A stretch of DNA of 64,000 nt, from the NCBI RefSeq assembly GCF_025751435.1, contig NZ_JAOWKY010000001.1:1038001-1102000 (forward strand), read 5' to 3'. The stretch is from Albidovulum marisflavi (GTDB lineage: Bacteria > Pseudomonadota > Alphaproteobacteria > Rhodobacterales > Rhodobacteraceae). A model generated the notes under the pieces. The model had not been told where the DNA came from. It was given only the letters and a program-made list of their open reading frames with translations, and did not search any database. The translations under genes were made by a program, and so were the position numbers. This document shows, one piece after another, positions 23,981 to 32,653 of this stretch; positions within the stretch are counted from its first letter, which is position 1, and every line of letters begins with the position of its first letter.

Positions 23981-25159
23981 ATGGAGCACGCGGCAAGGAA
24001 GCTCGTCATTCGCAACATCGGCTTGATGCTGTCAGGCAAGCTGGAACATCCGATCTACGATGCCGATTGCCTGGTCGCGATGGATGGCCGGATCTCGGAC
24101 TGGGGCCGCGAATCGGACCTGGACACCGAGGGCGCAACCACCCTGATCGACGCGCAGGGCACCACCCTTGCCCCCGGATTGATCGACAGCCATGTCCATC
24201 CCGTCGTCGGCGACTACACGCCCCGTCAACAGCAGCTTCACTGGATCGACTCGACCCTTCACGGCGGTGTCACCACGATGATCTCGGCCGGAGAGGTCCA
24301 CATGCCGGGCCGGCCCAAGGACATCGTCGGGCTCAAGGCGATGGCGATCGCCTCGCAGCGCTGGTACGAAAATTTCCGCCCCTCTGGTGTCAAGGTTCTG
24401 GCGGGCGCGCCGGTCATAGAACACGGGATGGAAGAGCACGACTTCAAGGATCTGGCCGACGCCGGTGTGAGGTTCCTGGGCGAAGTCGGCCTGGGGTCCG
24501 TCAAGGACGGCAAGACGGCCCGCCAGATGGTCGACTGGGCGCGCAAGTACGGCATCCAGTCCACGATCCACACCGGTGGCCCCTCGATCCCCGGATCGGG
24601 CCTGATCGATGCCGACATGGTCCTTGAAACCGGGACCGACGTCGTGGGCCACATCAACGGCGGCCATTCGGCCCTGCCGGACGACCAGATCGTCTGCCTG
24701 TGCGAAAATTGCCTGAAGGGGCTTGAGATCGTCCACAACGGCAACGAGCGTGCCGCGTTGCTGACGCTGAACACCGCGCGAGAACTGGGCAAGATGGACC
24801 AGATCATCCTGGGCACCGATGGCCCGGCGGGGTCGGGCGTGCAGCCGCTGGGGATCCTGCGCATGGTCGCGATGCTGTCGTCACTGGGCAACGTGCCGGC
24901 CGAAGTGGCTTTCTGCTTCGCCACCGGCAACACAGCGCGCCAGCGCGAGCTTGACGTGGGGCTGATCGAACGCGGCTACGCAGCGGATTTCGTGCTTATG
25001 GATCAGGCACAGCATTCCGGCGGCAGGACGATCCTGGAATCGGTGCAGCTAGGCAACCTTCCGGGCGTCGGCATGACCATCATCGACGGTGAGGTGCGGT
25101 CGCAGCGCAGCCGCAACACCCCGCCCGCGTGGAAGATCCCCGAAATCGCAGGGGCCTGA
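23981..25159 (+). CDS. Enamidase-like amidohydrolase
   Basis: 392 aa, metal-dependent amidohydrolase. Candidate dinuclear metal ligands are in canonical order: H71/H73 in 'GLIDSHVHPVV', E168 in 'FLGEVGLGS', H197 in 'STIHTGGPS', H224 in 'VVGHINGGHS' and D280 in 'ILGTDGPAGSG'. The overall pattern, including a bridging Glu instead of a carbamylated Lys, is that of enamidase from Eubacterium barkeri. That enzyme opens 1,4,5,6-tetrahydro-6-oxonicotinate to 2-formylglutarate and ammonia. The neighbouring reductase-like gene at 27593 would supply that substrate. The gene is convergent with the minus-strand operon and ends 3 bp from it. GGGGAGG before the ATG supports the start. Alternative: a lactamase-type amidohydrolase for a different ring. 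Confidence 0.75.
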   Translation: MEHAARKLVIRNIGLMLSGKLEHPIYDADCLVAMDGRISDWGRESDLDTEGATTLIDAQGTTLAPGLIDSHVHPVVGDYTPRQQQLHWIDSTLHGGVTTMISAGEVHMPGRPKDIVGLKAMAIASQRWYENFRPSGVKVLAGAPVIEHGMEEHDFKDLADAGVRFLGEVGLGSVKDGKTARQMVDWARKYGIQSTIHTGGPSIPGSGLIDADMVLETGTDVVGHINGGHSALPDDQIVCLCENCLKGLEIVHNGNERAALLTLNTARELGKMDQIILGTDGPAGSGVQPLGILRMVAMLSSLGNVPAEVAFCFATGNTARQRELDVGLIERGYAADFVLMDQAQHSGGRTILESVQLGNLPGVGMTIIDGEVRSQRSRNTPPAWKIPEIAGA

Positions 25160-25162
25160 CGC

Positions 25163-31791: not shown

Positions 31792-32653
31792 GCGGGCTCT
31801 CCATGATCTTTCCTAGCGCGCGAACGATCATCTCGTTCACCGCTTCCATGCGGTAGCGTGCAGGCGCGCGCACATCGTCGATGGGGGAAAGGGGGGACAG
31901 CATTTCGGGCGTGATTTCGAACGAGTCGGGCCCCTTGTGCAGGTCGCGGCCAAGCAGTGCCGCCTCGACCGCAGGAAGGCGGCGGGCAACCGGCGAACAG
32001 GCGCCGACGGCGATCCTGGCGGTTTGGACGCGGCCTTCGGCATCCGTGCTGACATTCGCCGCGACCATGGCGATGGAAATCACCAGATAGCGGCGGCTGC
32101 CCAGTTTAAGGAAAGTGGCGCGTTCGGTTGCAGGCGGATCTGAAAACAGCAAGGCCGTCACGATCTCTGCCGGGCCAAGCGCCGTCTTGCGCGGCCCAAG
32201 CAAGAAATCGGCCAGCGCGAGCCGTCGGATGCCTGCGGCCGAGACGCATTCAACCACTGCGTCCAGCGCAAGAAGCGGGGGGACGCCATCGGCGGCGGGA
32301 GACGCATTGCACAGATTTCCCGCGATTGTGCCAGCATTCTGGATCTGGACCGAGCCGACCTCTCGTGCTGCGGCGCGAAGGGCGTCAAAGGCGGGCGGCA
32401 GATCCGCCATCGCGATATCGGTCCAGGTCGTCGCCGCGCCAATCCTCCAGCCGTCGCCGTCATGGCCAATCCCGCGCAGCCCGGCAATGCCGGTTAGATC
32501 CAGCGCGTTATCGGGCAGCGGTCGGCCCTGTCGCGAAGGGTAGAAATCGGTGCCGCCCGCGATCAGCGGCATCGGCGTTCGCGCCAGCGCCGCAAGCGCT
32601 TCTGCAACGGTTCCGGGCCGTATGAGGGTCAATGCAGGACTCCCCATTTTCAT
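31784..32653 (-). CDS. FAD-binding subunit of the molybdenum hydroxylase
   Basis: 289 aa, CoxM/XdhB-type FAD domain. 'PLIAGGTDFYPSRQG' binds the FAD pyrophosphate and 'QIQNAGTIAGNLCNASPAAD' is the second conserved FAD loop. It passes electrons from the iron-sulfur clusters of the partner subunit to an acceptor. The start is interesting. The frame extends to 32692, but that codon lies in the promoter -35. Starts at 32653 or 32647 remain, and 32653 lies only about 4 nt from the predicted transcription start with no ribosome-binding site, so translation may be leaderless. First gene of the operon. Confidence 0.86.
   Translation of the reverse strand: MKMGSPALTLIRPGTVAEALAALARTPMPLIAGGTDFYPSRQGRPLPDNALDLTGIAGLRGIGHDGDGWRIGAATTWTDIAMADLPPAFDALRAAAREVGSVQIQNAGTIAGNLCNASPAADGVPPLLALDAVVECVSAAGIRRLALADFLLGPRKTALGPAEIVTALLFSDPPATERATFLKLGSRRYLVISIAMVAANVSTDAEGRVQTARIAVGACSPVARRLPAVEAALLGRDLHKGPDSFEITPEMLSPLSPIDDVRAPARYRMEAVNEMIVRALGKIMESPHG

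What the first reader, a model, noticed from the sequence alone, without database searches (positions are those of the whole stretch)
23981..32653. A probable N-heterocycle (nicotinate-like) degradation system with uncharacterised families replacing the later steps
Seen: seven minus-strand genes, with 4-8 bp overlaps at five junctions and a 4-bp gap at the sixth, encode a two-subunit Mo/[2Fe-2S]/FAD hydroxylase, a 6-hydroxynicotinate reductase-like protein, a UPF0280 protein, two DUF1185-type paralogues and a MarR regulator. A convergent enamidase-like gene ends 3 bp away. Known: in Eubacterium barkeri, nicotinate hydroxylase, 6-hydroxynicotinate reductase and enamidase carry out the first three steps of nicotinate fermentation. 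Inference: this aerobe runs the same opening (hydroxylate, reduce the ring, open it) but continues with UPF0280 and DUF1185 proteins instead of the mutase/hydratase branch. The operon would then assign functions to two unknown families. No gene for a complete classical lower pathway is nearby.
Basis: partly seen in the sequence, partly recalled or inferred. Interest (0 to 1): 0.88.

Follow-up and report, generated by a model that had tools for sequence, protein, structure and literature searches.

The report
Reductive nicotinate-type degradation operon with partners
A group of bacterial genes that probably breaks down vitamin B3-like ring compounds by reducing and then opening the ring; it is a known kind of pathway, but comparing hundreds of genomes shows which of its two mystery protein families belongs to which step.

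Summary
In detail: eight genes at 23981-32653, with the stated overlaps, encoding a Mo/[2Fe-2S]/FAD hydroxylase, a 6-hydroxynicotinate reductase homologue (HNR), UPF0280, two PF06684 (DUF1185) paralogues, MarR and a convergent enamidase. The families recur together (all eight in 35 of 58 long named loci). [quoted passage not shown]

UPF0280 looks unlike a later step: it is the constant partner of HNR, found in exactly the same 68 of 385 Alphaproteobacteria genomes and the same 18 of 224 in a phylum sample, whether the ring opener is enamidase or a caprolactamase-like HyuAB pair. Its predicted fold is ApbE-like, so I propose HNR maturation (flavin attachment). DUF1185 paralogue 2 instead tracks the enamidase: all 31 genomes with the enamidase have it, 2 of the other 354 do (not significant under tree control). 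DUF1185 also sits beside ring-fragment hydrolases elsewhere. I propose it processes the 2-formyl-dicarboxylate that ring opening releases. Substrate and both functions are inferred, not shown.

The parts
19057..19752 (-). GntR/FCD regulator (start taken at the Met before the domain; it lies in a longer ORF to 20733), divergent from the transporter; possible extra regulator of the transporter-enamidase unit
   Evidence: PF00392 and PF07729 over cut-off; 93-94% identical proteins in L112 and L081; role inferred
19882..23901 (+). Four ABC transporter genes (binding protein, ATPase with TOBE_2, two permeases) ending 79 bp before the enamidase; candidate uptake system for the substrate, where many relatives have a Liv-type transporter in the cluster
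   Evidence: Pfam; conserved in Defluviimonas loci L081 and L112; Liv-type binding protein in 50 of 80 named and 30 of 67 class-sample loci
23981..25159 (+). Enamidase-like amidohydrolase, proposed ring opener
   Evidence: 2VUN E. barkeri enamidase, 349.6 bits, residues 7-387 of 392; tracks DUF1185-2 31/31
25163..25588 (-). MarR regulator (GTG start, last gene of the operon)
   Evidence: PF12802, PF01047; start read from the bases
25585..26169 (-). PF06684 (DUF1185) paralogue 2, 'AAS2', same clade as enamidase-linked copies
   Evidence: 247.6 bits; tree; genome profile
26166..26750 (-). PF06684 (DUF1185) paralogue 1, 'AAS1', a separate clade
   Evidence: 242.4 bits; tree; in 36 of 67 class-sample HNR stretches
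26743..27588 (-). UPF0280/COG2122 protein, ApbE-like fold, constant genomic partner of HNR
   Evidence: NF003322 361/290 bits; model pLDDT 91.9, matches 2o34 and then ApbE structures; 68/68 and 0/317
27593..29065 (-). 6-hydroxynicotinate reductase homologue (HNR); 7 invariant Cys (14, 17, 21, 31, 118, 221, 356)
   Evidence: alignment of 47; annotated relatives; no convincing PDB sequence or fold relative
29062..31791 (-). Molybdenum hydroxylase, [2Fe-2S] domains fused to the Mo subunit
   Evidence: Fer2, Fer2_2, Ald_Xan_dh_C, MoCoBD_1/2; matches include 3HRD nicotinate dehydrogenase subunits, but not as the best hits
31784..32653 (-). FAD subunit of the hydroxylase
   Evidence: PF00941, PF03450

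Best explanation
This is a reductive (tetrahydro-6-oxonicotinate, 'THON') N-heterocycle degradation unit, most likely for nicotinate or 6-hydroxynicotinate. Proposed course: (1) uptake by the adjacent ABC transporter; (2) the Mo hydroxylase adds a 6-hydroxyl; (3) HNR reduces the ring to THON; (4) the enamidase hydrolyses THON to ammonia and 2-formylglutarate; (5) DUF1185-2 converts that unstable beta-formyl acid (or the aminomethylene form before it) towards glutarate semialdehyde and CO2, so carbon leaves as glutarate. UPF0280 takes no part in this carbon flow. It is a dedicated partner of HNR, most likely putting the covalent flavin into the reductase. DUF1185-1 is an optional accessory whose step I cannot place. 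Steps 2-4 rest on homology to characterised enzymes; the pairings UPF0280-HNR and DUF1185-2-enamidase are shown as genome statistics; the chemistry given to UPF0280 and DUF1185, and the substrate of the transporter, are inference.
For: UPF0280 = HNR partner: identical sets of 68 of 385 class genomes (compared, Fisher p 2e-77, genomes related) and identical sets of 18 of 224 phylum genomes (compared), 81 different genomes in all. UPF0280 is the next gene downstream in 61 of 62 class-sample and 72 of 77 named loci that have 900 bp or more downstream. 26 of 27 plasmid records with UPF0280 also hold HNR, and all 26 with HNR hold UPF0280 (compared by eye). It stays when the ring opener changes: enamidase in 16 and HyuAB in 21 of 67 class-sample loci, never both. 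ApbE-like: Foldseek finds 2o34, then only ApbE-family flavin transferases among its 23 matches at E <= 0.001. DUF1185-2 = enamidase partner: 31 of 31 enamidase genomes, 2 of 354 others (3 if the 59% copy of G104 is counted); one of the 31 (G082) has no HNR. More distant enamidase paralogues have a DUF1185 gene within 150 bp in 7 of 15 cases. DUF1185 elsewhere: in 10 non-HNR settings that I picked and read a hydrolase gene is the immediate neighbour in 7, and an aldehyde dehydrogenase lies in the cluster in 6. PMC7913881 (passage) says that the trigonelline-pathway homologue TgnF stimulates succinate semialdehyde oxidation. Residues without exception in the 94 DUF1185 rows aligned (gaps aside) include K83, E94, H95, R108, E162, R174 and R178 of paralogue 1, suited to acid-base work on a dicarboxylate (inference). 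Ferredoxin-NADP reductase genes lie in 20 of 80 named loci, as a ferredoxin-fed reductase would want, though in only 3 of 67 class-sample loci.
Against: Substrate untested; the hydroxylase matches several Mo enzymes better than nicotinate dehydrogenase. UPF0280 lacks the ApbE His motif (0 of 30) and HNR lacks the ApbE acceptor motif D..[ST]GA[ST] (0 of 41) (motifs recalled); the ApbE fold matches have low TM-scores (0.31-0.47 of the query among those at E <= 0.001); PMC5764234 (passage) says homology to ApbE does not seem to reach the flavin-binding region and ties COG2122 to a DUF39 sulfur pathway. The covalent flavin of E. barkeri HNR is recalled from the abstract of Alhapel 2006 (paper not held). 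DUF1185-2 also occurs with HyuAB and no enamidase in the stretch (L088, L116, L117, L121, L102/L179); 8 of 67 class-sample stretches have it without an enamidase in view; and the enamidase-DUF1185-2 link is not significant on the HNR tree (3 independent pairs on starred branches: 2 same, 0 opposite, 1 undifferentiated, p 0.5). 8 of 15 enamidase paralogues have no DUF1185 neighbour. An enamidase-family protein at 28% identity is a dioxygenase, KpiC (PMC7356986 passage). The coumarin homologue HcdD showed no effect in its authors' attempts.
Confidence: 0.55

Rival explanations
1. The same reduce-then-hydrolyse chemistry, but for another N-heterocycle (for example a demethylated trigonelline or homarine product, picolinate, or another hydroxypyridine).
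For: HNR of much the same identity serves clusters with HyuAB, whose best models are caprolactamase subunits far below cut-off (481.5 of 1000 and 291.4 of 1000 bits, tested on the L117 pair), so HNR alone does not fix the substrate. Rieske oxygenase genes in 27 of 80 named and 12 of 67 class-sample loci hint at N-methylated or other substrates.
Against: The window carries the enamidase, whose only strong solved relative is the THON enamidase. L119 and L137, also with enamidase and DUF1185-2, carry Mo-hydroxylase genes similar to L116 genes that its submitters named nicA/nicB; but NCBIfam has no model that confirms that name.
Confidence: 0.3
2. One reading: UPF0280 and both DUF1185 proteins are catabolic enzymes that replace the later mutase/hydratase steps.
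For: They are co-transcribed by position (overlapping or nearly touching genes) with the pathway genes.
Against: UPF0280 follows HNR and not the ring opener and has an ApbE-like fold. DUF1185-1 was not found in 31 of 67 class-sample stretches, some of them cut by contig ends. Part of this survives for DUF1185-2.
Confidence: 0.1
3. UPF0280 is an HNR partner of another sort: a permanent subunit, or a sulfur/Fe-S handling factor, as COG2122 is thought to be in homocysteine synthesis.
For: PMC5764234 (passages): COG2122 fitness matches DUF39 (r = 0.98), with a proposed persulfide role; HNR has 7 invariant cysteines; the canonical ApbE motifs are absent.
Against: ApbE-like fold, with N.GGD and AD..AT motifs in 30 of 30; HNR is recalled to carry a covalent flavin.
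Confidence: 0.35

Closest known systems
Azorhizobium/Bradyrhizobiaceae THON-type nicotinate cluster (Shettigar et al. 2012, PMC3511419; Kitts 1992 and Alhapel 2006 cited there, not read)
   Same: [quoted passage not shown] L137, a cluster from an unnamed 8.0 Mb genome, has such a content, with UPF0280 and DUF1185-2
   Different: Window: fused [2Fe-2S]-Mo hydroxylase with a separate FAD subunit, two DUF1185 copies, and an SBP_bac_8/TOBE-type transporter instead of the Liv type.
Eubacterium barkeri nicotinate fermentation
   Same: Enamidase homologue (2VUN), Mo hydroxylase of the same superfamily (3HRD), HNR by annotation of relatives
   Different: Whether its cluster holds UPF0280 or DUF1185 could not be checked.
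Trigonelline (tgn) clusters with the DUF1185 protein TgnF
   Same: DUF1185 beside a hydrolase in what looks like N-heterocycle catabolism (tgn make-up recalled)
   Different: Flavin monooxygenase and reductase genes in place of HNR; no HNR or UPF0280 in the stretches read
COG2122/UPF0280 of the DUF39 homocysteine pathway
   Same: Same COG, again an accessory bound to one pathway
   Different: Different partner; only remote similarity to the solved Desulfovibrio member (2o34, 23% identity)

Membership tests
THON-type nicotinate degradation cluster | Mo hydroxylase genes beside an HNR gene | tested here: met
THON-type nicotinate degradation cluster | Enamidase orthologue, full length, with the HxH, E, H, H, D positions lined up with 2VUN (ligand roles recalled) | tested here: met
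   alignment
THON-type nicotinate degradation cluster | Activity on nicotinate/6-hydroxynicotinate and glutarate as product | not testable with these tools
   needs growth and metabolite tests
UPF0280 (NF003322) | Score over the curated cut-off | tested here: met
   361 against 290 bits
ApbE flavin transferase (PF02424) | Score over the Pfam cut-off | tested here: not met
   11.7 against 25.6 bits
ApbE flavin transferase (PF02424) | Same fold | tested here: met
   Foldseek 5mgy E 8.7e-5, prob 1.00, but TM 0.41: fold alike, much diverged
ApbE flavin transferase (PF02424) | H-x-x-P-x-T-G motif (recalled) and D..[ST]GA[ST] acceptor motif (recalled) in the partner | tested here: not met
   0 of 30 and 0 of 41
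PF06684 (DUF1185, AA_synth) | Score over the cut-off, both copies | tested here: met
   247.6 and 242.4 against 27 bits
PF06684 (DUF1185, AA_synth) | Conserved cavity residues named for BB2672 (Glu90, His93, Arg176) | tested here: met
   named; placed by hand on the rows assuming a one-residue numbering offset; the matching columns are E in 98.9%, H and R in 100% of the rows aligned

The most novel reading that the evidence does not exclude
Two old unknown families get a job. DUF1185 is a 2-formyl-dicarboxylate (or aminomethylene-dicarboxylate) processing enzyme, probably a decarboxylase or tautomerase. It serves both reductive nicotinate breakdown (2-formylglutarate) and trigonelline breakdown (2-formylsuccinate) after their ring-opening hydrolases. 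UPF0280/COG2122 is a private flavin-attachment factor of a reductase, HNR, whose predicted fold has no convincing match among solved structures.
Probability: 0.3. Interest if true: 0.75.

Novelty: new member of a known kind. Interest (0 to 1): 0.55.

Why it matters
The pathway kind is known, but its accessory genes were left as 'conserved, unknown'. The genome profiles here split them: UPF0280 goes with the reductase, DUF1185-2 with the enamidase. Both become directly testable with one mutant and one in-vitro assay each. DUF1185 has two structural-genomics structures assigned to 'amino-acid metabolism' partly because of neighbouring branched-chain amino acid genes and transporters (PMC2954203, passages); Liv-type transporters are common in HNR clusters (50 of 80 named, 30 of 67 class-sample loci), so that inference may need replacing by N-heterocycle catabolism. 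HNR is common (68 of 385 sampled Alphaproteobacteria), yet the window copy matches no Pfam family and no solved relative was found.

Tried and rejected
Considered and rejected: (1) an ApbE acceptor motif at the 'DGGAT' stretch of HNR: not conserved, 0 of 41 for D..[ST]GA[ST], 7 of 41 for the loose [STG]GA[ST]. (2) HNR related to a known solved protein: profile search best E 0.42, Foldseek best E 0.16, none at 0.001 (model pLDDT 78.7, pTM 0.76); a short stretch resembles glycine-cleavage T-protein (prob 0.57), too weak to use. (3) HNR and UPF0280 related to each other: hhalign probability 0.3%. (4) HNR related to DUF39: not tested, no DUF39 sequences reached. (6) A tree-controlled test of enamidase against DUF1185-2: too few independent pairs. 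(7) No Rfam match at gathering score and no tRNA in the window. Homarine literature search gave nothing used. An early GntR query was cut in the wrong frame; the GntR claim rests instead. Papers: PMC3511419, PMC2954203, PMC5764234, PMC7913881, PMC9304392 and PMC7356986 were read as passages only; PMC12934955 as passages, not used; all others in the listings were seen as listings only, among them PMC12472160, which uses the HNR name once. Alhapel 2006 and Perchat 2018 are not held, and Kitts 1992 was not opened; facts from them beyond those passages are recalled. That no paper links UPF0280 or DUF1185 with HNR by name rests only.
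Full report
What is there. The closest relatives met are Defluviimonas (HNR 92% and 91% identical in L081 and L112). Their loci share the eight genes and the four transporter genes that lead into the enamidase gene, and a GntR/FCD protein 93-94% identical to the one at 19057-19752. 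So the functional unit probably starts near 19057, not at 23981. The operon has 67.4% G+C, the transporter genes 60.6%, the window 64.8%.

Is it more than a local accident. HNR was sought in 385 genomes drawn evenly from the class: 68 have it. I fetched 80 named loci (the best 80 of 91) and stretches round the other 67 class-sample genomes' places. The order FAD-Mo-HNR-UPF0280-DUF1185-DUF1185 recurs again and again. All eight families occur together in 42 of 80 named loci and 7 of 67 class-sample loci; many of these stretches are cut by contig ends. The named set leans to close relatives, the class sample does not.

UPF0280 belongs to the reductase. Searched separately in the same 385 genomes, UPF0280 is found in 68, and these are the same 68 (sets compared: 68 both, 0 and 0 alone, 317 neither). 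A phylum sample of 224 gives 18 and 18, the same handles (compared; 5 genomes are shared with the first sample, so 81 different genomes in all). These genomes are related, so Fisher's p (2e-77) overstates. Among the rows that the listings show, seven families hold both HNR-bearing and HNR-free members (f1, f16, f60, f67, f70, f82, f174; picked by eye; most HNR-free rows are not listed), and UPF0280 follows HNR in all seven (two-sided sign test 0.016). UPF0280 is the next gene in 61 of 62 class-sample loci and 72 of 77 named loci with room for it. The misses: L141, where it is seen in two pieces; L084, L091 and L092, where it lies elsewhere in the locus; L093 and L095, where none was found in the DNA held. 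On plasmids 26 of 27 records with UPF0280 have HNR; the exception, Hydrogenophaga BPS33, has it at four places on the record, the one read lying between IS1071 elements.

Two alternative ring openers. Enamidase occurs in 16 and a HyuA/HyuB pair in 21 of 67 class-sample loci, never both (Fisher p 0.0014, relatedness not controlled); in the 80 named loci 49 and 7, never both. HyuAB, tested on the L117 pair, resembles caprolactamase subunits best, far below the curated cut-off. HNR and UPF0280 stand in both kinds of locus. This is the main argument against UPF0280 as a step after ring opening.

DUF1185 splits into two clades. The tree of 94 rows separates paralogue 1 (support 99) from paralogue 2 (support 80). 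Paralogue 2 at 71% identity or more is found in 33 genomes, the enamidase at 66% or more in 31; all 31 have paralogue 2, including G082, which has no HNR, and the two extra genomes (G080, G195) have HyuAB. Both thresholds were set after seeing gaps in the identity lists; G104, with a 59% copy that the tree puts in clade 2 (L179) and no close enamidase, would be a third extra. On the HNR tree the enamidase changes at least 8 times and paralogue 2 at least 7, but only 3 independent pairs lie on well-supported branches, so no significance can be claimed under tree control. Further support: of 15 more distant enamidase paralogues, 7 (in five families) have a DUF1185 gene within 150 bp; 8 have none. 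Against exclusivity: paralogue 2 also sits with HyuAB in L088, L116, L117, L121 and L102/L179. Paralogue 1 is present in 36 of 67 class-sample stretches, with either ring opener.

What DUF1185 may do. In 9 plasmid settings without HNR that I picked from the 60 listed of 387 records, 5 (L193-L197) show flavin monooxygenase, flavin reductase, aldehyde dehydrogenase and alpha/beta hydrolase genes, the make-up of trigonelline clusters (the tgn make-up is recalled). The window's own genome has a third DUF1185 gene overlapping an alpha/beta hydrolase gene beside a GntR/FCD gene (L003). PMC7913881 (passage) says that TgnF stimulates succinate semialdehyde oxidation by TgnE, and that no such effect could be seen for HcdD. 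In the trigonelline route a hydrolase would release 2-formylsuccinate (recalled chemistry); the enamidase releases 2-formylglutarate. Both are beta-formyl acids that can lose CO2 to give a semialdehyde. I therefore propose that DUF1185 speeds the decarboxylation, or the enamine hydrolysis before it. Residues invariant in the aligned rows include K83, E94, H95, R108, E162, R174 and R178, and the three cavity residues named for the BB2672 structure are among the conserved columns. The printed 2QTP row reads, by eye, like paralogue 2 of this cluster; I take it to be the SPO0826 structure of PMC2954203, which has Liv-type transporter genes SPO0822-0825 beside it, as Liv-type ATPase genes lie in L073, a Ruegeria pomeroyi locus with this cluster.

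What UPF0280 may do. Its model (pLDDT 91.9) matches 2o34 and then only ApbE-type flavin transferases (23 matches at E <= 0.001), while Pfam ApbE is below cut-off. E. barkeri HNR is recalled to carry a covalent flavin. Together with the constant pairing this suggests flavin attachment. [quoted passage not shown] So the pairing is firm and the chemistry is open.

Substrate. The enamidase is the best pointer. The Shettigar strain degraded nicotinate and 6-hydroxynicotinate in growth tests and has a cluster of this description (passages), but I could not fetch that cluster by name. HNR itself does not fix the substrate, since HyuAB loci carry similar HNR. Rieske oxygenase genes stand near in 27 of 80 named and 12 of 67 class-sample loci, so N-methylated pyridines are possible.

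Verdict. The pathway idea is right in kind but already in print for relatives. The assignment of UPF0280 to later steps goes against the evidence. DUF1185-2 at or after ring opening is plausible and testable.

Noticed in passing
L003:1489-2857 (own genome, G000:C3 near 367493): A third DUF1185 gene overlaps an alpha/beta hydrolase gene, next to a GntR/FCD regulator: looks like a trigonelline-type TgnF/TgnD pair.
   Followed up: partly
L117, L118, L120, L121 and 21 of 67 class-sample loci: HyuA/HyuB (oxoprolinase family, caprolactamase-like in L117) stands beside HNR-UPF0280 where the enamidase is missing; the two ring openers never share a locus among the 147 named and class-sample loci searched.
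   Followed up: partly
L116:8761-10224, L115:8146-9555, L118:16897-18270: A protein of about 460-490 residues annotated only as hypothetical, near the Liv-type binding protein in several HNR clusters; the L116 copy has no Pfam match.
   Followed up: no
L189 (Hydrogenophaga sp. BPS33 plasmid): UPF0280 without HNR, at four places on the record; the one read lies between IS1071 elements with Rieske and PDR/VanB oxidoreductase genes.
   Followed up: no
L211, L209, L208: HNR-free loci with an enamidase paralogue and an adjacent DUF1185 gene also hold UbiD-type decarboxylase (L211), a Flavoprotein-family protein (L209), or HpaB, amidase and DmpG/acetaldehyde dehydrogenase-like genes (L208): other ring-degradation routes may use the pair.
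   Followed up: partly
window 27593-29065: HNR has no Pfam match, no PDB sequence relative and no Foldseek match at E <= 0.001 for a model of pLDDT 78.7: a possible new fold.
   Followed up: partly
window 19882-23901: The transporter genes have lower G+C (60.6%) than the operon beside them (67.4%), and many relatives have a Liv-type transporter in the cluster instead.
   Followed up: no
L117:2775-4800: A methylisocitrate lyase and a PrpF-domain gene near the HNR cluster of the Sagittula plasmid, families that recall the lower E. barkeri branch (recalled).
   Followed up: no
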